This document shows positions 12,938 through 38,232 of a stretch of 64,000 bases of DNA, piece by piece; position 1 is the stretch's first letter; each line of letters starts with the position of its first letter. This DNA comes from Erythrobacter cryptus DSM 12079. GTDB lineage: Bacteria > Pseudomonadota > Alphaproteobacteria > Sphingomonadales > Sphingomonadaceae. A program made the position numbers and the translations under genes. The stretch lies in the NCBI RefSeq assembly GCF_000422985.1, contig NZ_AUHC01000013.1:1-64000 (forward strand). Reading direction: 5' to 3'. The notes beneath the pieces are model-generated. The model saw nothing but the letters and a program-made list of their open reading frames with translations, did no database searches and was not told the DNA's origin.

Positions 12938-12949
12938 TGCACTGCACAA
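12938..12949 (-). promoter_or_regulatory. Putative PhaR-type operator upstream of the PssD-like gene
   Basis: On the minus strand this reads TTGTGCAGTGCA and ends 20 bases before the ATG of the PssD-like gene. A TATTGT overlapping its 5' side could be a -10 element. The same 12-mer in the same orientation lies before cysD and the phasin gene, and its TGC-N3-GCA core resembles operators described for PhaR. Binding is not shown. Confidence 0.55.
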
Positions 12950-13002
12950 TAGCGACCGGCGCGGGTTTGGTGGATCGCGGCCAGCCTGTCAACGCCGCAG
13001 GC

Positions 13003-13743
13003 TCACCCGGCGAGGCGGGCGATCTCGGCCAGCACACTTGCGGCCCATTCGCGCCTGCAGATGAGCAGATCGGGGATATAGGTATCGGCCTGGTTGTAGC
13101 GGAGCGGGCTGCCGTCGAGGCGCGAGCAGTGCAGGCCGTGCGCCGCGGCGACGGCGACGGGGGCGCAGCTGTCCCACTCATACTGGCCGCCCGAGTGGAG
13201 ATAGACCTCGGCTTCGCCGCGCACCACCGCCATCGCCTTGGCCCCGGCGCTGCCCATCGGCACCAGCGTGCCCCCGAGCGCCGCGGCGACCGCCTCGGCC
13301 TGGGCGGCCGGGCGCGTGCGGCTGACCACGAAGCGTGGGCACGCCGCCATGAGGGGGAGAGGGGCCGGCGCATCCGAGCGCAGCACCACGCCAGCGCCCA
13401 ATCCCGGCAGCGCCACCGCCCCGACCGCGGCGGCCCCATCAATGGCGAGCGCGACGTGGACGGCCCAATCTTCCCGATCTTCGCCAAATTCGCGCGTGCC
13501 ATCGAGGGGATCGACAATCCACACGCGGTTCTTGCCGAGGCGCGCGGGGCTGTCCTTCTCCTCCTCGGAGAGCAGGGCGTCCTCGGGCCTCATGTGCCGC
13601 AGGGCATGGCACAGGAACTGGTTGGCGGTGGCATCCCCGGCCTTTCCCAGCGCCTTGCCCGAAAAGACCCCGCTCGCGCGCACGCCCCGCAGCAGCTCTC
13701 CCGCCGCGGCGGCGAGGCGCGCGGCCAGCTCGGCATCGGTCAT
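13003..13743 (-). CDS. cysQ: 3'(2'),5'-bisphosphate nucleotidase, CysQ type
   Basis: This 246-residue enzyme belongs to the lithium-sensitive inositol monophosphatase superfamily and should dephosphorylate PAP or PAPS. The metal-binding sites are visible: LSEEEKD, WIVDPLDGTREF and the C-terminal EWDSCAPVAVAAAHG. The ATG at 13743 overlaps the upstream DUF2061 stop (ATGA), which favours it over an ATG 25 codons earlier. Its place behind cysD-cysNC supports a role in clearing the PAP left after sulfotransfer or PAPS reduction. Confidence 0.88.
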   Translation of the reverse strand: MTDAELAARLAAAAGELLRGVRASGVFSGKALGKAGDATANQFLCHALRHMRPEDALLSEEEKDSPARLGKNRVWIVDPLDGTREFGEDREDWAVHVALAIDGAAAVGAVALPGLGAGVVLRSDAPAPLPLMAACPRFVVSRTRPAAQAEAVAAALGGTLVPMGSAGAKAMAVVRGEAEVYLHSGGQYEWDSCAPVAVAAAHGLHCSRLDGSPLRYNQADTYIPDLLICRREWAASVLAEIARLAG

Positions 13744-14006
13744 TGTGCCGGTTCCTGTGATGCCACCGGGGTGGGCTGCGGATGGCCTGCCCTTATGCCC
13801 CAGCGGATCGAACTCCATGCACGCTCGTGCAAATAATAGAGCACCATCTTGGTCAGCACCTCGGTAAGCGCGATCGCGCCGGCCGCCTTGGCTGAGCGGG
13901 TGAACAGCCAGCTGAGCAGGAAGGTGTCGATGCTGCCCAGGATGCGCCAGCTGATCGCCTTGGCAAGCGAGCGGCTATGAGCCTCCTGACCATCAAACAG
14001 GAACAT
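13740..14006 (-). CDS. DUF2061 small membrane protein
   Basis: This 88-residue protein carries the DUF2061 pattern: RSLAKAISWRILGSIDTFLLSWLF, then a second helix and a KMVLYYLHERAWSSIRWG end. Two membrane helices are expected. DUF2061 proteins often sit with or fused to sulfate-activation genes, as here between cysNC and cysQ, but their job is unknown. A link to PAPS use or sulfate supply is inference from location. It lies 20 bases after cysNC and overlaps cysQ. Confidence 0.85.
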   Translation of the reverse strand: MFLFDGQEAHSRSLAKAISWRILGSIDTFLLSWLFTRSAKAAGAIALTEVLTKMVLYYLHERAWSSIRWGIRAGHPQPTPVASQEPAQ

Positions 14007-14026
14007 CGCGCAAGGCCCCCCCTCGG

Positions 14027-15937
14027 CTATTTGAGCGGCAGGATCCGCTCGATGATGTAGCGCGCCGCCTCTTCCGGGCTCATCTCGAGGGTGTTGACCC
14101 GGATTTCCGGGTTCTCGGGCGGCTCGTAGGGGCTGTCGATCCCGGTGAAGTTCTTGAGCTTGCCCTCGCGCGCCTTCTTGTAGAGGCCCTTGACATCGCG
14201 CGCCTCGGCCACGGCGAGCGGGGTGTCGATGAAGATCTCGATGAACTCGCCCGGGGGCAGCATCTCGCGCACCATCTGCCGCTCGGCCCGGAAGGGCGAG
14301 ATGAAGGCGGTGAGCACGATGAGGCCGGCATCGGCCATCAGCTTGGCCACTTCGCCCACCCGGCGGATGTTCTCGATCCGGTCGGCCTCGGTAAAGCCGA
14401 GGTCGCGGTTGAGGCCGTGGCGGACATTGTCGCCATCGAGCAGGAAGGTGTGGCGGTTCATCAGGAACAGCTGCTTTTCCACCTCGTTGGCGATGGTCGA
14501 TTTGCCGCTGCCCGAAAGGCCGGTGAACCACAGCACCCGCGGGGTCTGGTTCTTCATCCGCGCGTGATCCTCGCGGGTGATGCTGACCGGCTGCCAATGG
14601 ATGTTTTCGGCCCGCCTGAGGCTGAATGCGATCATCCCCGCGGCGACGGTGGCATTGGTGAACTTGTCGATGAGGATGAAGCCGCCCAGCTCGCGCGCGG
14701 TGGCATAGGGTTCGAACACGATCGGCCGGTCGGTGGCGAATTCGACCACGCCGATCGCGTTGAGGCCCAGCGTCTTGGCCGCAAGATGCTCGAGCGTGTT
14801 GACATCGATCTCGTATTCGGGCGGCTGGATGGTGGCGGTGACCATTTGCGTGCCCAGCTTGAGCCAATAGCCGCGCCCGGGCTTGAGGGCCTCCTCATCC
14901 ATCCACACCAGCGTGGCGCGGAACTGGTCGGAGGCCTGGGGCGGATCGTCGGCTGCCGCGATCATGTCGCCGCGGCTGCAATCGACCTCGTCGGCAAGCG
15001 TCAGCGTCACCGACTGGCCGGCCACGGCCTCATCAAGGTCGCCATCGAAGGTGACGATGCGCGCAATCGTGCTGGTCTTGCCCGAGGGCACGATACGCAC
15101 CTTGTCGCCGGGGCGGATGGTGCCGCTGGCGATCTGCCCGGCAAAGCCGCGGAAATCGAGATTGGGCCGGTTTACCCATTGCACCGGCATCCGGAAGGGG
15201 CGCGCCTGCGCGGCGGTGGCATCAAGCTCGACGGTCTCGAGATGGTCGATCAGGCTCGGGCCCGCATACCACGGCGTGTTGGGCGAGGGCGTGGTGATGT
15301 TGTCGCCGAGGAAGCCCGAAATCGGGATGGCGGTGAAGGCGCCGATCCCAATGCTTTCGGCAAAGGCGCGATAATCGGCGAGGATCGCGGCAAAGGTGGC
15401 CTCGTCATAGTCCACCAGATCCATCTTGTTCACCGCCAGCACCACGTGGCGGATGCCGAGCAGGTGGACGAGATAGGAATGGCGACGGGTCTGGCGCAGC
15501 ACGCCCTTCCTCGCATCGACGAGGATCACCGCCAGATCGGCGGTCGAGGCCCCGGTCACCATGTTGCGCGTGTATTGTTCGTGCCCCGGCGTATCGGCGA
15601 CGATGAACTTGCGCTTGGCGGTGGTGAAGAAGCGGTAGGCGACATCGATGGTGATGCCCTGCTCGCGCTCGGCGGCAAGCCCATCGACGAGTAGGGCAAA
15701 GTCGATCGCCTCGCCCTGGGTGCCGTGGCGCTTGCTGTCGGCCTCGAGCGCGGCGAGCTGATCTTCAAAGATCATCTTCGAATCATAGAGCAGGCGCCCG
15801 ATCAGCGTGGACTTGCCATCATCCACGCTGCCGCAGGTGATGAAGCGCAGCAGGCTCTTGTGCTGATGCGCCTCGAGATAGGCCTCGATATCCTCGGCCA
15901 CCAGCGCATCGACCTCAAATGAGGAGGGCGTGTGCAT
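14027..15937 (-). CDS. cysNC: Bifunctional sulfate adenylyltransferase subunit 1/adenylylsulfate kinase
   Basis: This 636-residue fusion forms PAPS from sulfate together with CysD. The N-terminal GTPase (CysN) has [28 protein letters not shown] and NKMDLVDY, followed by EF-Tu-like beta domains. From about residue 465 the APS kinase (CysC) has [18 protein letters not shown] and [16 protein letters not shown]. The ATG shares one base with the cysD stop (TGATG). Besides cysteine synthesis, the fused form with cysQ and polysaccharide genes nearby would suit production of PAPS for sulfated polysaccharide. Confidence 0.96.
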
Positions 15938-16839
15938 CAGAAATAGCCTTCCTGCTTCTTGTCTTCCATGCTGGCCGACTGGCCCTTGTCGATCGCCCGG
16001 CCCTGGCGTTCGGAACTGGTGGCAAGCAGCATTTCCTGGATGATCGCATTCATCTCCCGCGCCTCGCTTGGGGTTGCGCCGGTCAGCGGATAGCAGCCGA
16101 GCGTGCGGAAGCGCACCGAGCGCATCACCGGTTCTTCGCCCGGCGCGAGCCGGAAGCGCTCATCATCCACCACGATAATCAGCCCGTCGCGCTCCACCGT
16201 GGGGCGCGGCTTGGCAAAGTAGAGCGGGACGATGTCGATCTTCTCGAGCGCGATATATTGCCAGATATCAAGCTCGGTCCAGTTGGAGAGCGGGAAGACG
16301 CGGATGCTTTCGCCCTTGTTTTTCTTGGCGTTGTAGAGGTTCCACAGCTCGGGCCGTTGGTTCTTGGGATCCCAGCGATGCGCGGCGTTGCGGAAGGAGA
16401 AGATGCGCTCCTTGGCCCGCGCCTTCTCCTCGTCGCGCCGCCCGCCGCCGAAGGCCGCATCAAAGCCATGCTGGGTGAGCGCGCGCTTGAGCGGATCGGT
16501 GAGCTGCGCCTGGCTGTAGAGCGCGCTGCCGGTGTCGAAGGGATTGATGCCCTGGGCCTCCGCCTCCTCGTTCTGCGCCACGATCAGCTTGAGACCATAT
16601 TCGCGCACGGTGCGATCGCGGTGGGCGATGAGATCGCGGAAATCCCAGCCGCTTGCCACGTGCAGCATCGGAAAGGGCACCGGCGCCGGGTGGAAGGCCT
16701 TGCGCGCAAGGTGCAGCATTACCGAGCTGTCCTTGCCGACCGAATAGAGCATCACCGGATTTTCGGCCTCGGCCACCACTTCGCGGAAGATGTGGATGCT
16801 TTCGGCTTCGAGCCGTTCAAGGTGGGTCAGCACACGCAT
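15937..16839 (-). CDS. cysD: Sulfate adenylyltransferase subunit 2
   Basis: This 300-residue ATP-PPi synthetase-type subunit makes APS from ATP and sulfate, driven by CysN GTP hydrolysis. The PP-loop [17 protein letters not shown] and conserved segments [20 protein letters not shown] and [10 protein letters not shown] are present. I chose the ATG at 16839 ([17 protein letters not shown]) over one 12 codons upstream, because the longer frame would run through the TTGTGCAGTGCA site and the extra residues look non-coding. No clear ribosome site precedes the chosen start, which is odd. It heads a four-gene unit with cysNC, DUF2061 and cysQ. Confidence 0.95.
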
Positions 16840-16858
16840 GGGCGGGGGTGCTACACGC

Positions 16859-16870
16859 TGCACTGCACAA
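16859..16870 (-). promoter_or_regulatory. Putative PhaR-type operator upstream of cysD
   Basis: On the minus strand this reads TTGTGCAGTGCA and ends 19 bases before the cysD ATG. It is identical in sequence, orientation and spacing class to the sites before the PssD-like and phasin genes. It could also affect the divergent CoA transferase, whose ATG is about 140 bases away on the other side. Confidence 0.55.
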
Positions 16871-17011
16871 GACAAGCAAATTTGCCTTTGCCCGCCCCAT
16901 AGGCAGCCTTGTGCAGGCAGGGCGTGCGCGGGCTGTGCCGGGCCGCTCAGCGGGCTTGCTCTTGGCGCCCTTCAGCGCCACAGACACGCCCAGCACAGGA
17001 GAGAGCAAACA

Positions 17012-18097
17012 ATGACCCAAGCAAAAGGCCCGCTCGCCGGGCTCAAGGTGCTCGAATTTGCCGGGATCGGGCCGGGCCCGCACGTGGCGATGCTGCTGGC
17101 TGATCTTGGCGCCGAGGTGGTGCGGATCGACCGGCCGGGGGCAGGGGTGAGCAACCCGGTGGTCGAGCGCGCGCGCCACCGCCTCGCGCTCGATCTGAAA
17201 AGCGACGAGGGCAAGGCCGCGGTGCGCGCGGCCGCCCGCCATGCCGACGTGCTGATCGAGGGCTTCCGCCCCGGGGTGATGGAGCGGCTGGGGCTGGGGC
17301 CAGAGGTGCTGCTCGCCGACAATCCCCGGCTCGTCTATGCCCGCATGACCGGCTGGGGGCAGGATGGCCCGCTGGCTCAGGCGGCCGGGCACGATATCAA
17401 TTACATCGCCATCACCGGCGCGCTTGCCGCGATCGGCAGGGCGGGCGAGTTGCCCATCCCGCCGCAGAACCTGGTCGGCGATTTTGGCGGCGGATCGATG
17501 TATTGCGCCTTCGGGATCATGGCGGCGCTCTATGAGCGCGAACGCTCGGGCCGCGGGCAGGTGGTTGATGCCGCGATCGTCGATGGGGCCACCAGCCTGA
17601 TGAGCTTCTTCTTCGGGGTGCGCCAGGTGCCGCACCTCACCACCGCGCGGGGCAAGGGAATGCTCGGCGGGGCGGCGCATTTCTACCGCTGCTTTGTCTG
17701 CGCCGATGGCAAGGAGATCGCGCTCGGCGCGATCGAGCCGCAGTTCTATGCCGAGCTGCTGCGCCGCAGCGGCGCGCCCGAGGAGCTGGCCGAAGGGCAG
17801 ATGAACCCGGCCAATTGGGACGCCTATGCCGAGCGGCTCGCCGCCCTGTTCAAGACCAGGACGCGCGATGAATGGTGCGCGCTGCTCGAGGGCACGGATG
17901 CCTGCTTTGCCCCGGTGCTCGAGCTCGAGGAAGCGCGCGAACACCCCCACATGAAGGCGCGCGGCACCTATGTCGAGCACGAGGGGCTGTGGCACACCGC
18001 CCCCGCGCCGCGCTTCAGCCGCACCCCCGGCGCGGTGCGTGGCAGCGCTGACGATGGAGCCGAAGTGGTGGCGCGCTGGGCAAGCGAGGCTGGCTGA
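17012..18097 (+). CDS. CoA transferase family III, alpha-methylacyl-CoA racemase-like
   Basis: This 361-residue enzyme has the interlocked-ring CoA-transferase family III fold. The N-terminal [27 protein letters not shown], the [11 protein letters not shown]-like segment ([14 protein letters not shown]) and [14 protein letters not shown], which carries the catalytic Asp of alpha-methylacyl-CoA racemase, are visible. It should epimerise 2-methyl-branched acyl-CoA or move CoA between acids. An AGGAGAG ribosome site lies 8-10 bases before the ATG. It shares one base with the MaoC gene, so both probably act on the same branched or dicarboxylic acyl-CoA. Confidence 0.85.
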
Positions 18098-18546
18098 TGG
18101 CCGGGCGCTTCTTCGAGGAATGGCAGGTGGGCGAGCGGCTCGAGCACCCGATCCGCCGCACCGTGACCGAGACCGACAACCTGCTGTTCTCGACGATGAC
18201 CCACAATCCCCAGCCGCTTCACCTCGATGTCGAGGCAGCAAAGGCGAGCGGGTTCGGGCAGATCCTCGTCAATTCCACCTTCACCTTCAGCTTGCTCGTC
18301 GGCCTGTCGGTGGGGGAGACGACGCTGGGCACGCTGGTCGCCAATCTCGGCTTCGACAAGGTGGTGACCCCGAAGCCGGTGTTCATCGGCGATACGCTCC
18401 ACGCGGTGAGCGAGGTCAAGGAATTGCGCGAGAGCCGTTCGCGCCCCGATGCCGGGATCGTCACCTGGGTGCACGAGATGTGGAACCAGCGCGGCGAGAT
18501 GGTGTGCCGCTGCGAAAGATCGGCGCTGATCAAGCGCAGGGGGTGA
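18097..18546 (+). CDS. MaoC family (hot-dog) acyl-CoA hydratase
   Basis: This 149-residue hot-dog protein is a MaoC-type hydratase. The active-site loop reads [11 protein letters not shown], in which Asn replaces the usual Asp of R-specific hydratases; this NPQPLHLD form is typical of a MaoC branch related to mesaconyl-CoA hydratase. The length and the following [19 protein letters not shown] helix fit the family. The start is coupled to the CoA transferase stop. Its substrate is not certain; a branched or methyl-substituted enoyl-CoA is most likely. Confidence 0.82.
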
Positions 18547-18581
18547 GCATGAGGGGCGGCCAAGCGGGGAGGGCGGGCGCG

Positions 18582-19265
18582 ATGCGTTACGGGTTCCTGG
18601 TGGCCGGCCTGCTGCTCGCCGCCGCGCTCGGGGCAAGGGCGCAAACGCCCGAGGCGGGGCCGGCTCCGGCTCCGATCGATCTCGCCCGGGCGATGAGCGG
18701 ACAGTTTGCCACGCTTGCCGATGACAGCGCCAACAACTTTGCCGAAACGCGGCTGGTGTTTGACAACCCCGCGCTGCTCGCCACGCTGGCGCCGGGTGAG
18801 GTGGATGGCGCGCTTGTCTATTCCTCGCTCCTCACCGGGCCGGAGCGCCGCCCCTATCGCCGCCGGGTGAGCGTGATCACGCGCGACGGCGCGGGTTTGC
18901 GCAGCGAGGCCTATGCCTTTGCCGATCCCGCGCGTTTTGCCGCGGGGCTGCCCTCGATGGCCGAGCTTGCCGGGCTGGTGCCGGCCGATCTGGTGCGCGG
19001 CATTGCCGCAGCGCCGGGGGCGGACTGCGCGATGCGCTGGCGCGCGCTCGCCGCGCCGGGCCATTGGCGGGGCATGATCGATCGCGCGGACTGCCGCTTG
19101 TGGTCGGAGCGGCGCGGCGCTTTCATCGCGCTCGAGGCCGAAACGCGGATCGAACCAGGCCGGATCGCCCAGACCGAGCGCGGGTATGATGCCGATGGCC
19201 ACCAGCTGTTCGGCACCGCGCCGGGCGAATTCATCGTGCAGGTGGCCGTTCAGCCCCAACCCTGA
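18582..19265 (+). CDS. Secreted CpcT/CpeT-fold protein
   Basis: This 227-residue protein has a signal peptide (MRYGFLVAGLLLAAALGARA) and a CpcT/CpeT-like domain with the pattern ADCAMRWRALAAPGHWRGMI, then CRLWS and FIALEAETRI, ending in GYDADGHQLFG. In cyanobacteria this fold attaches bilins to phycobiliproteins, but here no phycobilisome gene exists, so the name should not be taken as function. It probably binds a hydrophobic ligand in the periplasm. I chose the ATG at 18582 because it starts the signal peptide and has GGGAGG upstream; an ATG at 18549 adds 11 residues. Confidence 0.75.
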   Translation: MRYGFLVAGLLLAAALGARAQTPEAGPAPAPIDLARAMSGQFATLADDSANNFAETRLVFDNPALLATLAPGEVDGALVYSSLLTGPERRPYRRRVSVITRDGAGLRSEAYAFADPARFAAGLPSMAELAGLVPADLVRGIAAAPGADCAMRWRALAAPGHWRGMIDRADCRLWSERRGAFIALEAETRIEPGRIAQTERGYDADGHQLFGTAPGEFIVQVAVQPQP

Positions 19266-19274
19266 GAACGAGGC

Positions 19275-20729
19275 TCACGCCCCGGGCACTGCCGGCGTGC
19301 CGCCCAGCGCCTGCCACAGCACGATCCGCGCCCGGGCAGCGCGCCCCAGCGCCGCGGCGGCGCGCTCGCCGCTGGCATCGGCCGCGCGGCGCGCCTCGAG
19401 CACTTCGAGGAAGCTCGCAAGGCCAGCGCGGTAGCGCGTTTCGGCCAGCGCGGCGGCACGTTCAAGCTGGTCGCGCTCGGCAAGGGCCGTGCGCGCCTCG
19501 GCATCGGCGGCGCTGACCACGCCATAGCCCGCCTCGGCATCGCCGAGCGCCCGGAATACCGCGGCGCGATAGGCGGCAAAGGCAGCCCGCTTGTCCGCCG
19601 CGGCTGCATCGATCCCGGCGCCCACCCGCCCGAAATCGAGCAGCGGCCCGGCAATTGCGCCCGTGAGCGTGCCGATGATCGAATCGCTGTCGAAAAAGTC
19701 TTCCGGATCGAAGGCGAGCAGCCCGATCACCGCCGAGAGGGTAATGCGCGGGAAGCGTGCCCGCGCGGCGGCGGCAAGATCGGCATCGCGCGCGGCAAGA
19801 TTGGCAGCGGCCGCGGCGACATCGGGGCGGTTGGCGAGGAGATCGGAGGGCAGCGCCGCAGGCGGGAGGGCAGGCGCTGCGAGCGGGGCCGGATTGGCGA
19901 GCGCGGCGCGCACCGTGGCCGCGTCCTTGCCGGTCAGCGTCACCAGCCGCCCGATCAGCCGTGCGCGCTCGCTTTCGAGCGCGGCGAGGCGGGTGGCCGA
20001 GGCGCTGGCATTGGCCTCGGCGCGCACCCGGTCAAACCCCGGGGCGATCCCCGCCTGCTCGCGCACCAGGGCGAGCCGGGCGAGGCCCTGCGCCGCCTCG
20101 GCATCGGCGCTGATGGCAGCAGCGCGCGCCTCGATCACCCGCCAGTCGGTGACGCTCGCGGCGATCTCGGCCAGCAGCGCCAGGCGCACGCCCTGCGCCT
20201 CGGCGCTGGCGGCATCGATGCGGGCGATGGCCGCCCGTTCGCGCGCCTTGAGCTGGCCGAAGATGTCCGGATCCCAGCTGGCGGTGATGTTGGCGCCGTA
20301 GAAGGTCTGCTCTGCGGGGATGAAGCCCTGCTGTCCCGCCGGGCCGAACTGGGCGGGATTGATGCGGTTTTGCCGGATGCTGGCATCGGCGCTGATATTG
20401 GGCAGGCGCTCGGCCCCGGCGCGGCGGGCGCCCGCGCGGGCGGCCTCGATCCGGGCGGCGGCCTCGGCAAGGCTCGGCGCCTCGGCCAGCGCGGCGGCGC
20501 TGAGCGCGCGATAGGCCGGATCGCCCTCGGGCATGAGCGCGGCAAGGCTGGCCGCGGTCTCGCCCGCCGGCGCGTGGAAGAAGGCCGCCGGCAGTTCGGG
20601 CGTGGGCGTGGCGATCTCGGGCTTGGGGTTCGCCATGCAGCCCGCCAGTGCCAGCGCCACTGGCAGCAAGGCGAGCCGCAGGGCGCGGCGGCGAGCGGGG
20701 GCGCTGGTGCCGGCAGGCATCGCCGTCAC
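19275..20729 (-). CDS. NodT-family outer-membrane efflux lipoprotein
   Basis: This 484-residue protein is a TolC/OprM-like outer-membrane channel. The N-terminus is a lipoprotein signal with LALAGC, followed by two repeated outer-membrane efflux domains rich in Ala/Glu/Arg helices, with NPAPL, NRPDVAAAAANLAARDADLAAA and FDFGRVGAGIDAA-like segments (LLDFGRVGAGIDAA). Its start overlaps the HlyD-family stop by ATGA, so it is the last gene of the four-gene exporter operon. An ABC-type rather than RND partner is indicated by the neighbours. Confidence 0.9.
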   Translation of the reverse strand: MTAMPAGTSAPARRRALRLALLPVALALAGCMANPKPEIATPTPELPAAFFHAPAGETAASLAALMPEGDPAYRALSAAALAEAPSLAEAAARIEAARAGARRAGAERLPNISADASIRQNRINPAQFGPAGQQGFIPAEQTFYGANITASWDPDIFGQLKARERAAIARIDAASAEAQGVRLALLAEIAASVTDWRVIEARAAAISADAEAAQGLARLALVREQAGIAPGFDRVRAEANASASATRLAALESERARLIGRLVTLTGKDAATVRAALANPAPLAAPALPPAALPSDLLANRPDVAAAAANLAARDADLAAAARARFPRITLSAVIGLLAFDPEDFFDSDSIIGTLTGAIAGPLLDFGRVGAGIDAAAADKRAAFAAYRAAVFRALGDAEAGYGVVSAADAEARTALAERDQLERAAALAETRYRAGLASFLEVLEARRAADASGERAAAALGRAARARIVLWQALGGTPAVPGA

Positions 20730-21724: not shown

Positions 21725-21757
21725 GGAGTCCTCGGCACGTTCACGGGGGAGAGGGGA

Positions 21758-23643: not shown

Positions 23644-23701
23644 GGGGAGGGAACCTCTGCGCTGGCGATGGGTTGCAATCTTGGGCTATCCGGCCCATTA
23701 T

Positions 23702-28839: not shown

Positions 28840-28856
28840 GTCCGGCCCGCCCTGGC

Positions 28857-28874: not shown

Positions 28875-28988
28875 CGCCAAGGAATAGCGCGCAACGCCCG
28901 CCTGGCAAGCGCAAGCGCCGCAGCGTCACGAGGCGGTCAAGCAGGGAGGAGGGTATGGGGCGCGCCGGCGTGGCGACGCTCCAACCGG

Positions 28989-29333
28989 TCAGCCGTCGTA
29001 ATCGCCGCCGAGCGAGGCGGTGCGCGCCGGCGCCGAGGCGGTGATGCGCAGCGCTTCGGCCGACTGGCTGAGCGAGCCGATCTCATCGGCCTCGTCCTCG
29101 TCATCGGGGAGGATCTTCTGGAGGCTGGTGATCAGCGCCTCGCGCAGCGAATCGGGGCTGATCGTCTGCTCGGCGATCTCGCGCAGCGCCACCACCGGGT
29201 TCTTGTCCCGATCGCGATCGATCGTCAGCTCGGCGCCGCCCGAGATCTCGCGCGCACGCTGCGCGGCGAGCAGCACGAGATCGAAACGGTTGGGAACCTT
29301 GTCAACGCAATCTTCAACCGTGACGCGGGCCAT
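28989..29333 (-). CDS. rpoZ: RNA polymerase omega subunit
   Basis: This 114-residue protein opens with [30 protein letters not shown], the conserved omega N-terminus (quoted length is the motif region at residues 1-30), and has the [10 protein letters not shown] segment. It stabilises beta-prime and assembles into RNA polymerase; in proteobacteria it also forms part of the ppGpp site. The Met at 29333 is the family start; 20 extra upstream residues are unlikely. The C-terminal acidic extension is typical of sphingomonads. Confidence 0.95.
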
Positions 29334-29423
29334 GGGGAGCCTTCTTCCAAATAAGCTGGGAAAGGGGAAGCGCGCAGCTAGGCATCGCGCCACGCAAAGT
29401 CAAGCGTGGCGCCGCAGCCTGGC

Positions 29424-30128: not shown

Positions 30129-30254
30129 TCCTGTTCTGCTCCTTGCGGCGCGGTGCTGGCGGGCAGTCTCGGGGCGGCGGCGCGCTTTGGCAAGGCCGTC
30201 TGCGGATGGGCGGGTGATTTCGCCGCCGGGAAAAAGGTTCTAGATCCCTTGGCC

Positions 30255-31427: not shown

Positions 31428-31440
31428 GCCACCGCGCGCC

Positions 31441-32274
31441 TCACACGTCCTCGAAGCGGGGCTTGCGGCGCTCCATCTCGGCCATCACCGCTTCCACCTG
31501 GTTGCGGCTGCGCATCAGTGCGTGCTGCTCGAGGCTTTCCTCCATCAGGATCGCATCGGTCTCGCGCTCCCACATGGCCGCCTGCAGCCGCTTGGCGGCG
31601 CGGATCGCGTGGGGGTTCTTGTTGGCAATCTGGCGGGCGATGGCGAGCGCGCGTTCGTGCGGGTTGTCATCGACATGAGTGGCAAGGCCAAGCGCCTGGG
31701 CTTCGGCACCGGAAAATTCGCGATTGGTGTAGATCAGCTCGCGCAGCACATCATCGCGCACCAGCCCGCGCCACAGCGCATAGCCGCCCATGTCGGGCAC
31801 GAGGCCCCACTTCATCTCCATGATCGCCATGCGGGTCTGGGGATGAACGATGCGGATGTCGGCACCGCTGGCGATCTGGAGGCCCCCGCCGAAGCACACC
31901 CCGTGCACCGCGGCGATCACGGGGACGGGCAGCTTGCGCCATTGCATGGCCACCTGCTGGGCGCGGTTGGCATTGCCATGGGTGCGCTCGGTCAGCGCTG
32001 GCTCGTCCGGGGCGGGCTGGCGCGAGAAATTGGACAGGTCGAGCCCGGCGCAGAAGGCCCGGCCCTCGCCCGAGAGCACCACGACGCGCAGCCCCTTCAT
32101 GCGTTGCAGTGTGCTGCCCGCCTCGATGATGCGCGCGAACATCTCCGGATCGAGCGCATTGAGCTTGTCGGCGCGGGTGAGACGCACCTCGGCCACGCCT
32201 TCGGCATCGAGGGTGATGGCGACACGGTCATTGCTGGTGTGGGAAATGGTGGCAGACACGGGATCGGCGGACAT
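31441..32274 (-). CDS. Crotonase/enoyl-CoA hydratase family protein
   Basis: This protein of about 277 residues has the crotonase fold: LSGEGRAFCAGLDLSNF and the HGVCFGGGLQIASGADI loop. The first catalytic Glu position is Gln (GGGLQIA) while an acidic side chain occurs at MEMKWGLVPDMGG, so it may be an isomerase or dienoyl-CoA type rather than a hydratase. ATG 32274 has GAGGA at a workable distance; an ATG at 32286 adds four residues. It is separate from the five-gene operon by 80 bases. Confidence 0.83.
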   Translation of the reverse strand: MSADPVSATISHTSNDRVAITLDAEGVAEVRLTRADKLNALDPEMFARIIEAGSTLQRMKGLRVVVLSGEGRAFCAGLDLSNFSRQPAPDEPALTERTHGNANRAQQVAMQWRKLPVPVIAAVHGVCFGGGLQIASGADIRIVHPQTRMAIMEMKWGLVPDMGGYALWRGLVRDDVLRELIYTNREFSGAEAQALGLATHVDDNPHERALAIARQIANKNPHAIRAAKRLQAAMWERETDAILMEESLEQHALMRSRNQVEAVMAEMERRKPRFEDV

Positions 32275-32356
32275 GGCGACAGGCATTCCTCGTCAAGGGC
32301 TGTTGGCGCCGCCAAGACTGGCCGATCCCTCGCCCCAAGTCCAGCGCCGCGCGCGC

Positions 32357-32743
32357 TCAGCAGGCGGGGGCGGCGTGCCCAGAGGCAGGATCGAGGAAAT
32401 AGCCGCCCGCCGGGTGGGTGGCGATCAACCGGGCGAGGCCGAAGGGTTCGAGCTTGGCGCGCACCCGCGCGACATGCACCGCGAGGCTGTTGGTCTGCGG
32501 CTCGTAGCGGATGCGCCACACATCGGCGAGCAGCTGCTTGCGGCTCACGCACACGCCCGGCTGCTCGGCAAGGCGCCAGAGCAGGGCAAATTCGCGCGGG
32601 TGCAGCCCGAGCCAGCTGTCCACCACCCGCCCGTCACGGTGGAGCAGGTCGAGCGTGACATCCCCGGCCTCGCGAAAGCGCGGCATCATCAGCGCCGTTT
32701 CGGGTGCCCCTGGGAGGGGTTGGGACGGAGTCACCGCGTTCAC
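32357..32743 (-). CDS. Stand-alone OmpR-type winged-helix protein
   Basis: This 128-residue protein contains an OmpR/PhoB winged-helix domain (LHPREFALLWRLAEQPG, SRKQLLADVWRIRYEPQTNSL, VHVARVRAKLE, and an IATHPAGGYFL wing) but no receiver domain. It starts at GTG 32743, which overlaps the RadC-like stop (GTGA), so translation is coupled. Without a receiver, activity must depend on another partner, possibly the other proteins of this operon. It is the last gene of the five-gene unit. Confidence 0.8.
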   Translation of the reverse strand: MNAVTPSQPLPGAPETALMMPRFREAGDVTLDLLHRDGRVVDSWLGLHPREFALLWRLAEQPGVCVSRKQLLADVWRIRYEPQTNSLAVHVARVRAKLEPFGLARLIATHPAGGYFLDPASGHAAPAC

Positions 32744-33162
32744 AGCAGCCCCCCGGCGCGCATCGAATAGACCGCATCGCGGGTGAAGATGAGGTGATCG
32801 ACCAGCGTGATGTCGAGCGCCCGGGCGATTTCGGCCAGGCGGCGCGTGGCGGTGATGTCGCGCCCGCTCGGGCGGCACTGGCCCGAAGGGTGACTGTGGG
32901 CAAGGATGAGGCCGGCGGCATCGCGCCGCAGCGCCTCGCCGAGCAGCGAGCGCATCCGCAAGGTGAGCGTCGCCTCGCCGCCCATGCCGAAAGGGGCATC
33001 GCCTGCCCAGCCCTGCGCGGCATCGAGGAAGACCGCATGGCCGCGCTCATGGGTCACTGGCGGCGCCAGCAGCACGCTGCGCAAATAGGCGATCAGCCCG
33101 GCGGCGCAGCGCTCGGCGGCTTGGCGCTGGGCCTTGTCTGATTGAGGGGCGAGGGTCAGCAT
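32740..33162 (-). CDS. RadC-like JAB/JAMM domain protein
   Basis: This 140-residue protein is the JAMM metalloprotease-fold half of RadC without the N-terminal helix-hairpin-helix part. The metal site HSHPSG-N5-D is intact (AHSHPSGQCRPSGRDI), with a Glu upstream in GEAL. JAMM proteins cleave isopeptide or cysteine-linked conjugates, or have lost catalysis; RadC proteins have no agreed function and occur often in mobile islands. Here it sits between a membrane protein and a winged-helix protein. Confidence 0.85.
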   Translation of the reverse strand: MLTLAPQSDKAQRQAAERCAAGLIAYLRSVLLAPPVTHERGHAVFLDAAQGWAGDAPFGMGGEATLTLRMRSLLGEALRRDAAGLILAHSHPSGQCRPSGRDITATRRLAEIARALDITLVDHLIFTRDAVYSMRAGGLL

Positions 33163-33195
33163 CGCGGTGGTTCTCCGCAGCAGGGGGCAGGCCTG

Positions 33196-33723
33196 TCAGC
33201 CATGCGGCCCGGCGCTGTTGCCCGCGCTCCAGATGCGCCCCGTCGCTGGGGTGCGCGGGCGCCAGTCGCGGTAAGGGCCGTAGCGTCGCAGGCGCAGGCA
33301 GTGGAACAGCAGCCCGCCGGCGAGCACCAGCAGCTGGCCATAGGACGGGCCGATGGCAAGGATGGCATAGGCGAGCGGCGAGACCGCATCGACCAGCCCG
33401 CGCACCACATGGGCGCTGAGTGCCACCAGCTGGAACCCGGCGAGCCACAGCGTGTAGCTGCGGTTGGCCTTGAGCGCGATGGCAATGAAGGCCGCCGCGG
33501 CGACGATGTCAAACAGGGTGTAGAGCCAGGCCAGATTGCCGAACAGCAAGGCGATGTCCTGCCCGGTCAGCCGGGTGAGCATCGCGGGCACGATCAGCAG
33601 GCCGACGAACACGAGGCCCGCCGCCCGCTCCGGCCCTGCGCCGAAGCGCAGCACCGCCAGCCCCAGGGCGAAGCTGGCGATGTATTGCGCATCGGCGCGA
33701 TAGAGGCTCAGCCATTCGAGCAT
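33196..33723 (-). CDS. Polytopic membrane protein of unknown function
   Basis: This 175-residue protein has about five hydrophobic helices (near 13-30, 37-55, 62-82, 90-110 and 125-145) and a short basic C-terminus. I do not recognise a family. It starts 13 bases after the upstream helical protein and ends 33 bases before the RadC-like gene, so it belongs to the same minus-strand operon. It could be a sensor or a membrane anchor for the regulators encoded with it. Confidence 0.7.
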   Translation of the reverse strand: MLEWLSLYRADAQYIASFALGLAVLRFGAGPERAAGLVFVGLLIVPAMLTRLTGQDIALLFGNLAWLYTLFDIVAAAAFIAIALKANRSYTLWLAGFQLVALSAHVVRGLVDAVSPLAYAILAIGPSYGQLLVLAGGLLFHCLRLRRYGPYRDWRPRTPATGRIWSAGNSAGPHG

Positions 33724-33736
33724 GGTGCTGCGCCGG

Positions 33737-34081
33737 TCAGATGGCGGTCTCCGCAACCGGGGCGGGCGCATCGGCGAAGGCGGTCTTGGGAAATTCGGTG
33801 GGAATGCCCGGATCGCCCCCGGCATAGACCTCGGCCACCTTGCTGAGCTCGGCATGGACCCTCAGCAGCGCGGTGGACATGGCGAGCGCCTGGCTTTCGG
33901 CCTCGGTCAGGCGCATCAGCGCGCGCTGTCCGGTGTGCACCTCGACTTCGGGGTTCTGGCGCGCGCTCAGCATCGCCTGTTTGAGCCGGGCCATGGCGAT
34001 GATCGATTCGTCGGCAAGCGCCTCGGCCTCGCGGATGAGCTTCTTGAGATTGTGCGCGTCACAGATAATGCGGTCGTTCAT
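33737..34081 (-). CDS. Small helical protein of unknown function
   Basis: This 114-residue protein is almost wholly alpha-helical with heptad-like Leu/Ala spacing (IREAEALADESIIAMARL, TALLRVHAELSKVAEVYA) and a Pro-rich tail, suggesting a coiled coil or four-helix bundle. No family is recognised. I prefer the ATG at 34081, which follows GGGGGGAAG, over a GTG at 34111 that overlaps the previous stop. It lies in the RadC/HTH operon between two membrane proteins. Confidence 0.65.
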   Translation of the reverse strand: MNDRIICDAHNLKKLIREAEALADESIIAMARLKQAMLSARQNPEVEVHTGQRALMRLTEAESQALAMSTALLRVHAELSKVAEVYAGGDPGIPTEFPKTAFADAPAPVAETAI

Positions 34082-34107
34082 CGTTTTCTTCCCCCCGATC
34101 CCGGCGC

Positions 34108-34713
34108 TCACCCGGGACGGATCGATTGGCCCAGGGGGATGGCAGCCTTGCCGTCCATCGCCTCGCTCAGCGCCACCGCCGCGGTGACCGTGAGCACCAC
34201 CGCGGCGAGGATGCCGCCGGCGATCCCGACGATCGCGGCAAGGCGCAGCAGGACGGCGTTTTCACCATCGAGCGCCCCCGGGACCACCCGAGGCTCGCCG
34301 GGCCTGAGCCAGGGTGCCTGTTCAATCAGCGGCACCGCATCGCCAAGCACGAGTTGCCCCGGGTCGTCCTGCCCCAAGCCATCGGCAGGATCGACGGCGG
34401 GCTGAAGCTGCGTTTTTGTATATGCAGCTTCGCTCAAGGGGGGCTCAGCGATCGCGGAGACCGGCTGTGCCGGCGCAGAGGGGCGGTGCGTCGGGGGATC
34501 ATCCGCAACTGCCAGCGTCGCGCGGTAGTTTTCGACGAGTTCGCCGAGGCTCGCCGCGCAATAGGCGTCCTTGAGCGCGCGGATGTGCTGGTTGATTCGG
34601 GTTTCGGATACGCCGAGTTCCTGCGCGATCACCTTGATCGGCACCCGGCGGTCGATGCGCTCCATCACGGCGCGCTGTCTGTCGGTCAGTCGCCGTGCGG
34701 CTCGGCCCCGCAT
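34108..34713 (-). CDS. LuxR/GerE-type HTH protein with C-terminal membrane helix
   Basis: This 201-residue protein has an N-terminal GerE-like helix-turn-helix (LTDRQRAVMERIDRRVPIKV and IAQELGVSETRINQHIRALK, about residues 9-47), a long Pro/Ala-rich linker, and one C-terminal membrane helix (about 158-182). The architecture is that of a membrane-tethered regulator, possibly released or repositioned on a signal. GGGGAGGA precedes the ATG at good spacing. It is the first gene of the five-gene operon; several palindromes lie in its upstream region. Confidence 0.8.
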   Translation of the reverse strand: MRGRAARRLTDRQRAVMERIDRRVPIKVIAQELGVSETRINQHIRALKDAYCAASLGELVENYRATLAVADDPPTHRPSAPAQPVSAIAEPPLSEAAYTKTQLQPAVDPADGLGQDDPGQLVLGDAVPLIEQAPWLRPGEPRVVPGALDGENAVLLRLAAIVGIAGGILAAVVLTVTAAVALSEAMDGKAAIPLGQSIRPG

Positions 34714-34750
34714 CCGGTTCCTCCCCTGTCAGTCAGCCTTTGGTATCCGT

Positions 34751-34819
34751 CCAGCGCTGGCATCAGTCCAGCTTGGCTTACACACAAGCTAACGCATTTT
34801 GGACAGGAATTCTCCTGTC
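34751..34819. promoter_or_regulatory. Palindrome cluster upstream of the membrane-tethered HTH gene
   Basis: The 140-base gap before the HTH gene holds three dyads: CCAGCGCTGG (34751-34760), an AGCTTG/CAAGCT repeat around 34770-34790, and GACAGGAATTCTCCTGTC (34802-34819), which has perfect seven-base arms. GTCCAGC also occurs twice with a 17-base period. These are likely operators for this operon, perhaps bound by one of its own HTH proteins. Confidence 0.5.
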
Positions 34820-34853
34820 GTCTGCGCTGCGCCTTGATGTTGGAGTAGTCGGA

Positions 34854-36053
34854 TCAGGCGGCCGAGGAATTGACTCCGAGCGACTGGAGATAGCGGCGGA
34901 TGTTGCGCGCCGCCTGGCGCAGGCGCTGCTCGTTCTCGACCATGGCGATGCGCACATAGCCCTCGCCATTCTCGCCATAGCCCACGCCCGGGGCCACCGC
35001 GACCTGAGCATGCGTGAGAAGCTGCTTGGAAAATTCGAGGCTGCCCATCGCCTTGAGCGCCGGGGGCAGGGGCGCCCAGGCGAACATTGAGGCGGGCGGC
35101 GGCGGGATTTCCCACCCGGCGCGGCCGAAGGCCTCGACCATCACGTCGCGGCGGCGGCGATAGAGTTCGCGGTTGGCCTCGACGATGTCCTGCGGCCCGT
35201 TCAAGGCGGCGCAGGCCGCCGCCTGGATCGGGGTGAAGGCGCCGTAATCGAGATAGGACTTGACCCGGGTGAGCGCGGCAATGAGCTGGCGGTTGCCCAC
35301 CGCAAAGCCCATCCGCCAACCGGCCATAGAATAGGTCTTGGACATGCTGGTGAACTCGATCGCCACGTCCTTGGCGCCCGGCACCTGCATGATCGAAGGG
35401 GTGGGCTTGCCGTCGAAATAGAGCTCGGAATAGGCAAGGTCGCTCACCACCCAGACGTGGTTTTCCTTCGCCCAGGCCACCAGCCTTTCATAAAAGGGCA
35501 GATCGACCACCTCGGCGGTGGGGTTGGAAGGATAGCTCACCACCAGCACCGAGGGGCGCGGCACGGTGAAGTTCATCGCCCGCTCGAGCGATTCCCAATA
35601 GTGGTCATCGGGGGTGGTCGGCACCGAGCGGATCGTGGCGCCGGCGATGATGAAGCCGAAGGTGTGGATCGGATAGCTGGGATTGGGCGCCAGCACCACA
35701 TCGCCCGGGGCGATGATCGCGGTGGCAAGGCTCGAGAGGCCCTCCTTGGAGCCCATCGTCACCACCACCTCGGTTTCCGGATCGAGTTCGACCCCGAACC
35801 GGCGCGCGTAATAGCCCGCCTGCGCGCGGCGCAGCCCCGGAATGCCCTTCGACTGCGAATAGCCATGGGCATCGGGCTTGGCGGCGACTTCGCACAGCTT
35901 GTCGATCACGTGCTGCGGCGGGGGCTGATCGGGATTGCCCATGCCCAGATCGATGATGTCCTGCCCGGCAAGCCTTGCGGCATGGCGCATGGCGTTGACC
36001 TCCGCGATCACATACGGGGGCATCCGCTTCATGCGATAGAACTGGTCATTCAT
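34854..36053 (-). CDS. PLP-dependent class I/II aminotransferase (alanine/LL-DAP aminotransferase-like)
   Basis: This 399-residue enzyme has the aminotransferase fold I core. PLP is bound at Lys in TSMSKTYSMAGWRMGF; NPSYP, SYPSNPTAEV and DLAYSELYF form the cofactor and substrate pocket. The N-terminal start MNDQFYRMKRMPPYVIAEV is typical of the AlaC/YfdZ and LL-diaminopimelate aminotransferase-like branch. It most likely makes alanine from pyruvate with glutamate, though a role with aspartate or methionine cannot be excluded. It reads away from phaC, with a shared gap of 162 bases. Confidence 0.85.
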   Translation of the reverse strand: MNDQFYRMKRMPPYVIAEVNAMRHAARLAGQDIIDLGMGNPDQPPPQHVIDKLCEVAAKPDAHGYSQSKGIPGLRRAQAGYYARRFGVELDPETEVVVTMGSKEGLSSLATAIIAPGDVVLAPNPSYPIHTFGFIIAGATIRSVPTTPDDHYWESLERAMNFTVPRPSVLVVSYPSNPTAEVVDLPFYERLVAWAKENHVWVVSDLAYSELYFDGKPTPSIMQVPGAKDVAIEFTSMSKTYSMAGWRMGFAVGNRQLIAALTRVKSYLDYGAFTPIQAAACAALNGPQDIVEANRELYRRRRDVMVEAFGRAGWEIPPPPASMFAWAPLPPALKAMGSLEFSKQLLTHAQVAVAPGVGYGENGEGYVRIAMVENEQRLRQAARNIRRYLQSLGVNSSAA

Positions 36054-36215
36054 CGATTGTCATCACCTTGTCTTGCGCTCGCCCGATGAGGCCGTCGCCG
36101 CCTTTCTCCCTAAGCCAAGACCGCCGCGCGAGGAAAGGCGTTTTCGGCAGTTGAAGCGGCTGGAAATTCGCGGCACTGCTTATGCCGCATACGCTATGCA
36201 GGGATCCCAACGGCG

Positions 36216-38111
36216 ATGGCATATGAGAGCGACCCGATGGCCACCACCCGTGAGAACCTCGCCGCCTTCGTGGCGATGCAGGGCGAGGCGGTGCGCGCGA
36301 TGATGGGCGGTGCGCCCGCAGAGGCGCTGCTGGAGCAGGGGCTGGAGAGCAGCGAAATGGCCGAATGGGCCGCCACCGGCGCGCAGCTCCAGCAGCTCTG
36401 GCTCGAATTTGCCGCGCACCAGGCCGAGGCCGCCAGCGCCAAGGTGGCAAAGGGCGCCAATCCGCTCGATCCGGCACAGTGGCTGGTGATCGCCCAGGCG
36501 ATGCTGGGGCACAGCCCCAAGGGGCTGATCGAGGCGCAGGCGCGCCTGGCGCAGGAACAGCTGCAATTGTGGTCGGGGCTGGTGGAGCGCTTCGCCAAGG
36601 GGGGCGCCCTGACCGAGGCGCCCGATCCGGCCACGCTCCCCCGGCAGGACCGCCGCTTTGCCGATCCGGCCTGGCGCGCGCACCCGGCCTTCCTGCTCCT
36701 CCACCAGACCTATCTGATGCTTGCCGACTATTTCCGCTCGGCCGTCAGGAATATCGAGGGCCTCGATCCGCAAAAGCGCCAGCAGCTCGAATTTGCCGTG
36801 GGCGCGCTTGCCGAGGCGATGAGCCCGGACAATTTCCTCGCGCTCAATCCGGTGGTGATGAAGCGCACGATCGAGACTCGCGGGGCCAACCTGGTGCGCG
36901 GGATGCGCCACCTCATCAATGATCTGAAGCGCGGCCAGCTCACCCACACCGATCCTCACGCCTTCCGCCTCGGCGAGAACCTTGCCGCAACCCCGGGCAA
37001 GGTGGTGCACGAGACCCGGCTCTACCAGGTGATCCAGTACACCCCCACCACCGAGGAGGTGCTTGAGGTGCCGCTGGTGATCTTCCCGCCGTGGATCAAC
37101 CGCTTCTACATCCTCGATCTCACGCCGAAGAAGAGCTTCATAAAGTGGGCGGTGGATCAGGGGATCAGCGTGTTCGTGGTCAGCTGGCGCTCGGCCGATG
37201 CGAGCCTGGCTGATGTGGTGTGGGACGATTACATCCGCGCCCAGATCGACACGATCGATTTCGTCCGCGCCCGGCTCGGGGTGGAGCAGGTGCACACCAT
37301 CGGCTACTGCGTCGCCGGCACCACGCTGGCGGCAACGCTTGCGGTGCTCGCGCGCCGGGGCGAGGCCGACAAGGTTCGGAGCGCGACCTTCTTCACCGCG
37401 CAGGTCGATTTCGAGAAGAGCGGGGACCTCAAGAATTTCATCGATGATGCCCAGCTCGAACTGATCGGCCAGCTCAGCCCCGATGGCTATCTCGATGGGC
37501 GCTATCTTGCTGCCACCTTCAACGCCCTGCGCAGCCGCGACCTCATCTGGAACTACGTCGTCAACAATTATCTCTTGGGCGAGGACTATCCGGCCTTCGA
37601 CCTGCTGCACTGGAACGGCGATGTCACCAACCTGCCGGCCAAGTGGCACAATGCCTATCTGCGCGACCTTTATCGCGACAACAAGCTGGTGGTGCCGGAC
37701 GCGCTTGAAGCCGATGGCACGCCCATCGATCTCACCCGGGTGACCACGCCTGCCTATGTCCAGGCCGGGCGTGAGGATCACATCGCCCCGGCTGAGAGCG
37801 TGTGGCGCATCACCCGCCACTTCAAGGGCCCGATCGAGTTCCTGCTGGCGGGTTCCGGGCACATTGCCGGGGTGGTTAACCCTCCGGCGGCGGGCAAGTA
37901 TCAGTACTGGACCGGCGACAGCAGCGCGCCCTCGCTCAAGGCCTTCGTGGAAGGGGCCAGTGAACACCCGGGCAGCTGGTGGCCGCACTGGCTGGCCTGG
38001 CTCGAGCGTCAGGGCGAGGCGCGCGTGCCCGCGACCGGAAAGCGCGTGCCGGGCGGCAAGGGCGACCAGGTGATCGAGGATGCCCCGGGGCGCTATGTCA
38101 AGACCCGCTAG
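36216..38111 (+). CDS. phaC: Class I poly(3-hydroxyalkanoate) synthase
   Basis: This 631-residue enzyme polymerises 3-hydroxyacyl-CoA into PHA on granule surfaces. The lipase-like box is GYCVAG with catalytic Cys365; Asp521 (REDHIAP) and His549 (GSGHIAG) complete the triad, and the Asp-His spacing of 28 matches known class I enzymes. The PhaC N-terminal region and FPPWINRFYILDL are present. ATG 36216 or 36237 may be the start. The phasin gene follows after 139 bases with its own operators and promoter. Confidence 0.96.
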   Translation: MAYESDPMATTRENLAAFVAMQGEAVRAMMGGAPAEALLEQGLESSEMAEWAATGAQLQQLWLEFAAHQAEAASAKVAKGANPLDPAQWLVIAQAMLGHSPKGLIEAQARLAQEQLQLWSGLVERFAKGGALTEAPDPATLPRQDRRFADPAWRAHPAFLLLHQTYLMLADYFRSAVRNIEGLDPQKRQQLEFAVGALAEAMSPDNFLALNPVVMKRTIETRGANLVRGMRHLINDLKRGQLTHTDPHAFRLGENLAATPGKVVHETRLYQVIQYTPTTEEVLEVPLVIFPPWINRFYILDLTPKKSFIKWAVDQGISVFVVSWRSADASLADVVWDDYIRAQIDTIDFVRARLGVEQVHTIGYCVAGTTLAATLAVLARRGEADKVRSATFFTAQVDFEKSGDLKNFIDDAQLELIGQLSPDGYLDGRYLAATFNALRSRDLIWNYVVNNYLLGEDYPAFDLLHWNGDVTNLPAKWHNAYLRDLYRDNKLVVPDALEADGTPIDLTRVTTPAYVQAGREDHIAPAESVWRITRHFKGPIEFLLAGSGHIAGVVNPPAAGKYQYWTGDSSAPSLKAFVEGASEHPGSWWPHWLAWLERQGEARVPATGKRVPGGKGDQVIEDAPGRYVKTR

Positions 38112-38167
38112 CGCCTCTGCGGCCTGCCGTGCTGCAATCAAGGCGTTGAAGTAAAGGCAGATTACAG

Positions 38168-38194
38168 GCATTTTTGTGCACTGCACAAAAATGC
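38168..38194. promoter_or_regulatory. 27-bp perfect palindrome, probable PhaR operator
   Basis: Two 13-base arms (GCATTTTTGTGCA and its exact complement) flank a single C. The centre reads TTGTGCACTGCACAA, with the TGC-N3-GCA core. It abuts the -35 element of the phasin promoter. The same 12-mer TTGTGCAGTGCA found at the other three sites is read from its minus strand. Confidence 0.75.
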
Positions 38195-38232
38195 TTGACT
38201 TCGCAGGCGCACTGACTATTTTGTGCAGTGCA
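38195..38232 (+). promoter_or_regulatory. Phasin promoter with overlapping second operator
   Basis: TTGACT at 38195-38200 and TATTTT at 38217-38222 are spaced by 16 bases. The second operator TTGTGCAGTGCA (38221-38232) starts within the -10 element and covers the expected transcription start, ending 18 bases before the phasin ATG. With the palindrome on the other side, the promoter is bracketed by two sites, as expected for repression released when PHA accumulates. Confidence 0.7.

What the first reader, a model, noticed from the sequence alone, without database searches (positions are those of the whole stretch)
12938..38232. One 12-mer operator shared by phasin, PssD-like and cysD genes: a putative PHA-exopolysaccharide-PAPS regulon
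TTGTGCAGTGCA occurs at 12938-12949 (minus), 16859-16870 (minus), 38221-38232 (plus), and again in the 27-base palindrome at 38168-38194. In three cases it lies in the same orientation 18, 19 and 20 bases before a start codon: phasin, cysD, PssD-like. The expected count for a given 12-mer on both strands of 64 kb is about 0.008. The TGC-N3-GCA core agrees with operators reported for PhaR. I infer that one PhaR-like repressor ties PHA granule coating to polysaccharide glycosyltransfer and to sulfate activation. Roles of PhaR-like proteins in exopolysaccharide control are known in rhizobia (AniA), but I do not know of a link to cysD.
Basis: partly seen in the sequence, partly recalled or inferred. 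Interest (0 to 1): 0.78.

Follow-up and report, generated by a model that had tools for sequence, protein, structure and literature searches.

The report
PhaR switch at sulfate-polysaccharide operon
In this Erythrobacter/Porphyrobacter-like bacterium, the DNA switch that controls the storage-plastic genes also appears to sit in front of sulfate-activation and polysaccharide genes, and some related genomes keep such switches there too, which hints that one sensor of stored carbon may also steer sulfur and polysaccharide chemistry.

Summary
The 12-mer is real, correctly placed and rare: four copies in the 2.95 Mb genome, all in this window. It is part of a 15-bp operator, TTGTGCAnTGCACAA, that equals a PhaR (AniA)-bound site published for Sinorhizobium meliloti. 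The genome has one PhaR. The operator precedes phaP (two sites, 30 of 30 same-genus loci) and phaZ (30 of 30), so PhaR identity is well supported, although binding was not tested. The pssD site recurs at about the same promoter place in part of the genus, with the base changes PhaR tolerates (YGCRNYGCR in 13 of 41 deduplicated loci; 2 to 3 expected). The cysD site is patchier: exact in 4 of 37 cysD promoters, in the -35/-10 spacer, in more than one branch. In one relative a different polysaccharide gene fills pssD's place and carries its own site. A SulP permease, not found in this genome, has a site in 13 of 18 same-genus loci. PhaR control of exopolysaccharide is published, and NodP, a CysD homologue, rises in an S. 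meliloti phaR mutant; predicted direct operators on sulfate activation appear new. The closeness of phaP to cysD here is not kept in three relatives.

The parts
38168..38194 (.). distal phaP operator: 27-bp palindrome GCATTTTTGTGCACTGCACAAAAATGC, core 38174-38188
   Evidence: core equals the S. meliloti phaP1 site; distal site found upstream of phaP in 30 of 30 same-genus loci
38221..38235 (+). proximal phaP operator TTGTGCAGTGCAACA, overlapping the predicted -10
   Evidence: second site in 30 of 30 loci
38195..38222 (+). predicted phaP promoter TTGACT-16-TATTTT
   Evidence: consensus scan; 1 found, shuffles mean 0.1
38251..39069 (+). phaP, phasin
   Evidence: Pfam Phasin_2, E 8.3e-24
36216..38111 (+). 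phaC, PHA synthase
   Evidence: Pfam PhaC_N, E 1.4e-63
16856..16870 (-). cysD operator TTGTGCAGTGCAGCG, inside the spacer between proposed -35 (TTGCTT, 16874-16879) and -10 (TGTAGC, 16850-16855)
   Evidence: same aligned place in G028, G019 and G004; promoter elements assigned by eye from the alignment; the consensus scan found no promoter here
15937..16839 (-). cysD, sulfate adenylyltransferase small subunit
   Evidence: TIGR02039 over cut-off
14027..15937 (-). cysNC, sulfate adenylyltransferase large subunit fused to APS kinase
   Evidence: NF004035 over cut-off, Pfam APS_kinase
13740..14006 (-). DUF2061 membrane protein
   Evidence: PF09834, E 2e-23
13003..13743 (-). cysQ-like 3'(2'),5'-bisphosphate nucleotidase
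   Evidence: Pfam Inositol_P; TIGR01331 at 102 bits, below its cut-off of 228.8
12935..12949 (-). pssD operator TTGTGCAGTGCACCA, downstream of a conserved TTGACA (12987-12992, minus strand)
   Evidence: aligned relatives
12459..12917 (-). pssD-like glycosyltransferase subunit
   Evidence: NF041549 PssD at 67 bits, below its cut-off of 110; Alg14-like, just below its cut-off
11980..12462 (-). pssE-like glycosyltransferase subunit
   Evidence: NF041548 PssE at 84 bits, below its cut-off of 120; Glyco_tran_28_C
10579..11883 (-). UDP-N-acetyl-D-mannosamine dehydrogenase (WecC-like), downstream
   Evidence: NF008286 over cut-off
9446..10582 (-). UDP-N-acetylglucosamine 2-epimerase (WecB-like), downstream
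   Evidence: PF02350, E 1.4e-117
17012..18097 (+). CaiB/BaiF-type CoA transferase, divergent from cysD (a rival target of the 16856-16870 site)
   Evidence: PF02515

Best explanation
TTGTGCAnTGCACAA is the operator of the genome's PhaR. PhaR binds two such sites at phaP and one at phaZ and represses them; when PHA granules form, they take up PhaR and the genes are freed. In this strain the same repressor also has a site in the cysD promoter spacer (cysD-cysNC-DUF2061-cysQ) and one just downstream of the pssD promoter (pssDE), so PHA accumulation would also free sulfate activation (PAPS supply) and one glycosyltransfer step of a polysaccharide. Shown here: the sites, their rarity, their conservation pattern, the single PhaR. 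Taken from the S. meliloti paper: titration of PhaR by PHB and repression of phasin and depolymerase genes. Inferred: binding in this organism, repression at cysD and pssD, and the physiological sense.
For: One PhaR, over the TIGR01848 cut-off. phaP double site in 30 of 30 and phaZ site in 30 of 30 same-genus loci (one phaZ locus, L187, had been read at the wrong place and carries the site when anchored correctly). The core equals S. meliloti phaP1; the SMa1961 site ATATTGTGCAGTGCAGCAACA, scored 'Efficient' for binding, shares 14 bases (TTGTGCAGTGCAGC) with the cysD site. Among all 21-mers of the 64 kb window, a PWM trained only on phaP/phaZ sites ranks phaP distal, phaP proximal and pssD 1st to 3rd and cysD 5th. 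pssD upstream hits at p<0.01 in 6 of 18 same-genus loci (null of 3722 random segments); YGCRNYGCR at -60..-10 in 13 of 41 deduplicated pssD loci against 2.6 (Markov) or 4.5% per 50-nt segment. cysD site at the same aligned place in G000, G028, G019 and G004, although cysD of G019 and G004 has no CaiB neighbour. In G028 the gene after cysQ is an unrelated nucleotide-sugar dehydrogenase and has its own TTGTGCATTGCAACA; 5 of 9 orthologues of that gene have a strong site.
Against: No binding or expression data from this organism. The exact cysD site is missing from 33 of 37 cysD promoters, and the loose pattern is not enriched there (4 of 27 against 1.7). 28 of 41 pssD loci lack the loose pattern, and none of the 46 more distant pssD loci, L137-L182, mostly Rhizobium, has a site with 3 or fewer mismatches within 400 bases. 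PWM p for the window's cysD site is only 0.0064. Across other families of the order, motif counts do not cleanly follow presence of PhaR. At the phaR promoter itself only a weak match was found.
Confidence: 0.7

Rival explanations
1. PhaR controls phaP, phaZ and the pssDE promoter, but the cysD copy is a chance or fading site without effect.
For: Exact site in 4 of 37 cysD promoters; no enrichment of the loose pattern; asymmetric right arm, PWM p 0.0064.
Against: The same aligned place, exactly in the -35/-10 spacer, in four genomes; G004 lies outside the well-supported group that holds G000 and G028 (G019 was not on that tree). The asymmetric form TTGTGCAGTGCAGC is bound by S. meliloti PhaR at SMa1961.
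Confidence: 0.2
2. The site between cysD and the divergent CoA transferase (17012-18097) serves the CoA transferase, not cysD.
For: In G011 and G031 a site lies between this CoA transferase and a nucleotide-sugar dehydrogenase.
Against: In G019 and G004 the cysD site is present, at the same distance from cysD, and no CoA transferase was found in the fetched stretch. In G025, G014, G016 and others the CoA transferase is divergent from cysD without a site.
Confidence: 0.07
3. Another transcription factor, not PhaR, reads the motif.
For: Identity rests on comparison; binding was not tested here. Motif counts outside the genus do not follow PhaR cleanly.
Against: Sites at phaP and phaZ in 30 of 30 loci each and identity with a PhaR-bound S. 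meliloti site; PhaR found in 36 of 37 same-genus genomes.
Confidence: 0.04
4. The repeated 12-mer is a chance coincidence or a mobile repeat.
For: Loose matches (up to 2 mismatches) are only mildly in excess in the window.
Against: 211 against 6 strand-hits in 37 genomes; recurrence in front of orthologous genes.
Confidence: 0.02

Closest known systems
PhaR/AniA regulon of Sinorhizobium meliloti (PMC12542648; seen: search listing, find passages, section 18 part 1)
   Same: Palindromic YGCRNYGCR operator with AT-rich arms; two sites at phasin genes; depolymerase and exopolysaccharide genes as targets; ppdK as a target (a site lies 64 bases before a ppdK-like frame in G033); NodP raised without PhaR.
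   Different: There the sulfate gene is nodP on pSymA, with no site listed for it in the part of Table 3 that I read; here a predicted operator sits directly in the promoter of the housekeeping-type cysDNC-cysQ operon, and the polysaccharide genes are pssDE or a nucleotide-sugar dehydrogenase.
PhaR of Bradyrhizobium diazoefficiens (PMC10888616; seen: search listing and find passages)
   Same: Pleiotropic PhaR; consensus NGCN3GC[GA]N3.
   Different: The passages seen name no sulfate-assimilation target.
Rhizobium leguminosarum pssD/pssE glycosyltransferase pair
   Same: Two-subunit architecture and gene order; PssD and PssE are among the best NCBIfam matches.
   Different: Scores fall below the NCBIfam cut-offs; Rhizobium pssD loci show no such site.

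Membership tests
PhaR-type operator | YGCRNYGCR palindromic core with AT-rich arms (S. meliloti consensus) | tested here: met
   Window sites TGCACTGCA and TGCAGTGCA. The AT-rich arms are full at the phaP distal site and partial at pssD and cysD.
PhaR-type operator | conserved in front of phasin and depolymerase genes | tested here: met
   30 of 30 phaP and 30 of 30 phaZ same-genus loci
PhaR-type operator | bound by PhaR and released by PHA | not testable with these tools
   needs EMSA/ChIP and PHA titration
PhaR protein | PHB_acc_N plus PHB_acc domains, TIGR01848 over cut-off | tested here: met
   L020 1453-2019: PF07879 and PF05233 over cut-off, TIGR01848 153 against 109.45 bits
PhaR regulon member: pssDE | operator conserved in relatives at the same promoter place | tested here: met
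   13 of 41 deduplicated loci with the loose core; in the hand-chosen alignment of 13 sequences 12 keep it, L107 does not. Met for part of the genus only.
PhaR regulon member: cysD operon | operator conserved in relatives at the same promoter place | tested here: inconclusive
   4 of 37 cysD promoters
PssD family (NF041549) | score over curated cut-off | tested here: not met
   67.1 against 110 bits; PssD-like only
CysQ (TIGR01331) | score over curated cut-off | tested here: not met
   102.2 against 228.8 bits; CysQ-like only

The most novel reading that the evidence does not exclude
In Erythrobacteraceae PhaR is a carbon-overflow switch for sulfur as well: stored PHA frees sulfate uptake (SulP), sulfate activation (cysDNC-cysQ) and polysaccharide building together, so that excess carbon is routed into sulfated products (glycans or other PAPS-dependent sulfation), with each lineage plugging a different polysaccharide module into the same PhaR-controlled slot after cysQ.
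Probability: 0.3. Interest if true: 0.72.

Novelty: new variant of a known kind. Interest (0 to 1): 0.55.

Why it matters
PhaR is known as the PHA-granule sensor and, in rhizobia, as a regulator of exopolysaccharide and central carbon genes. A direct operator on the PAPS-making operon would tie the cell's carbon store to sulfate activation, give the NodP rise in S. meliloti a likely meaning, and make the purpose of PhaR beyond granules testable in easily grown marine and freshwater bacteria. The pattern of one operator kept while the polysaccharide gene behind it changes is a clear case for studying how regulons pick up new members.

Tried and rejected
Rejected: chance (211 against 6). Rejected: meaning in the clustering within the window (phaP and cysD lie 0.37 to 0.94 Mb apart in G019, G004 and G003). 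Rejected: extension to rhizobial pssD (46 loci L137-L182, none with 3 or fewer mismatches within 400 bases upstream). Did not discriminate: PhaR presence against motif count outside the genus. A three-mismatch match near a sulfotransferase gene on contig C6 does not fit YGCRNYGCR and was left. The sulfotransferase search covered one Pfam family only (PF13469, one match in the genome), so a need for PAPS in sulfation is possible but not shown. Tree: 28 rows of PhaZ; G005, G006, G009, G018, G019 and G030 fell out because my marker motif was not found, and G007, G012 and G034 were not given; the bootstrap had not settled and 13 of 25 inner branches were open. The promoter scan found no consensus promoter at cysD or pssD; the -35/-10 there are read by eye from alignments. 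Two phaZ loci (L184, L187) were anchored at the wrong base; re-read L187 and found the site, so the count is 30 of 30 instead of the 29 of 30 in my note. Literature: searches; none of their listings showed a paper on a PhaR site at cysD or SulP, in an open-licence library only.
Full report
Observation. TTGTGCAGTGCA occurs exactly at the four stated places. The whole genome (2,954,426 bases, 34 contigs) has only these four, where about 0.21 are expected. Two belong to one phaP promoter. The 15-bp palindrome TTGTGCANTGCACAA has two perfect places in the genome, in front of phaP and in front of a gene at C10:83328 that reads as an intracellular PHA depolymerase, phaZ (the name phaZ is read from the sequence, no family search was run on it). 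Next come pssD (1 mismatch) and, at 2 mismatches, the proximal phaP site and one place inside a coding stretch (C3:249029); cysD has 3, together with other places that look random.

What it is. The genome has one PhaR (C1:177881), with both PhaR domains and over the TIGR01848 cut-off. In S. meliloti, PhaR/AniA sites follow WNWD2NYGCRNYGCRNH2WNW; the phaP1 site holds TTGTGCACTGCACAA and the bound SMa1961 site holds TTGTGCAGTGCAGC, the cysD form (PMC12542648, section 18 part 1). In the same-genus set the double site stands in front of phaP in 30 of 30 loci and the single site in front of phaZ in 30 of 30 (L187 corrected). At phaP the distal palindrome abuts a predicted -35 and the proximal site overlaps the -10, a layout that fits repression.

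pssD. The gene pair pssDE (12459-12917, 11980-12462) follows cysQ after an 85-base gap that holds a TTGACA and the site. In 18 same-genus genomes with pssD (of 37, own included), TTGTGCANTGCA is exact upstream in G000, G025, G003 and G014, and six pass p<0.01 with a matrix trained on phaP/phaZ only. With named relatives added and duplicates dropped (11 of 52), 13 of 41 have YGCRNYGCR between -60 and -10, where 2.6 are expected from Markov shuffles. In an alignment of 13 sequences that I chose for likeness, TTGACA is invariant and 12 keep the core while changing A to G or T to C inside it; L107 (E. dokdonensis) does not. Relatedness among sequences is not corrected for. pssD of G022 and G036, unlinked to cysD, also carries a PhaR-like core.

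cysD. The site lies in an 18-base spacer between TTGCTT and TGTAGC, read by eye from the alignment. It is exact in G000, G028, G019 and G004, of 27 deduplicated promoters, and in none of ten more divergent cysD promoters: 4 of 37. The other promoters keep the -35/-10 places but not the operator. On the PhaZ tree G000 and G028 fall in a supported group that excludes G004, so the site was either gained more than once or lost often. CaiB is divergent from cysD in G000 and G028 but was not found beside cysD in G004 and G019, so the site follows cysD.

A replicate. In G028 the slot after cysQ is filled by a nucleotide-sugar dehydrogenase (TIGR03026 for its G031 orthologue) instead of pssD, and its promoter has TTGTGCATTGCAACA. 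Of nine orthologues of this gene in the 61 genomes, five (G031, G011, G028, G026, G020) have a strong site. So front sites occur on two unrelated polysaccharide modules.

Wider set. I read 34 chosen regions round other exact hits in 13 genomes (the hit list was cut and I did not take all of it). Sixteen fall in front of genes that recur: a SulP-type permease (5; Pfam Sulfate_transp in two tested), the guaA/UrcA gap (5), the nucleotide-sugar dehydrogenase (2), a ParA-like ATPase (2), a metallophosphatase (2). At least four lie inside long frames and look random (L265, L267, L272, L287). SulP, searched by protein, has a site in 13 of 18 same-genus loci; none was found in G000 at that cut-off. 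In G018 and G019 it lies beside a Cys/Met PLP enzyme. What the permease carries is not known; NCBIfam matches to sulfate, C4-dicarboxylate and bicarbonate carriers are all below cut-off (on a 408-residue part).

How it probably works. PhaR represses; PHA granules bind PhaR and free the genes (shown in S. meliloti for phasin and depolymerase genes, abstract passage). Applied here, PHA build-up would free PAPS synthesis and a polysaccharide step. Repression at cysD and pssD is inferred from the site positions.

Against. No binding data; patchy cysD; no rhizobial pssD site; motif counts outside the genus do not track PhaR.

Novelty. PhaR control of exopolysaccharide is published (PMC12542648), and NodP is raised (log2 4.34) in phbC phaR against phbC under low phosphate. 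Predicted direct operators on cysDNC-cysQ and SulP were not seen in the listings.

Noticed in passing
window 62249-62269 and 62338-62358: Two further PWM matches (6.3 and 15.6) in the gap between a CC_3452-family gene (61847-62191, -) and a gene with weak similarity to RrpB-type MarR factors (62400-62954, +).
   Followed up: partly
L296-L313 (SulP loci of relatives): PhaR-type site about 85-125 bases before a SulP-type permease in 13 of 18 same-genus loci; also matches in G058 and G053 of another family.
   Followed up: partly
L257, L269, L273, L275, L282: Site TTGTGCA(C/T)TGCACCAGAGTT repeated in the gap between guaA and an UrcA-family or other small gene in five genomes (families tested on L273 only).
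   Followed up: partly
L261 and L283: Site at or just before a ParA-like partition ATPase in G019 and G012; might concern granule segregation.
   Followed up: no
L329 (G028): The nucleotide-sugar dehydrogenase behind cysQ is reported with one internal TGA, so it may be broken in that genome.
   Followed up: no
L020 1380-1400: Weak YGCRNYGCR-containing match (TGCGCTGCA, PWM 0.9) about 70 bases before phaR; possible weak self-regulation.
   Followed up: no
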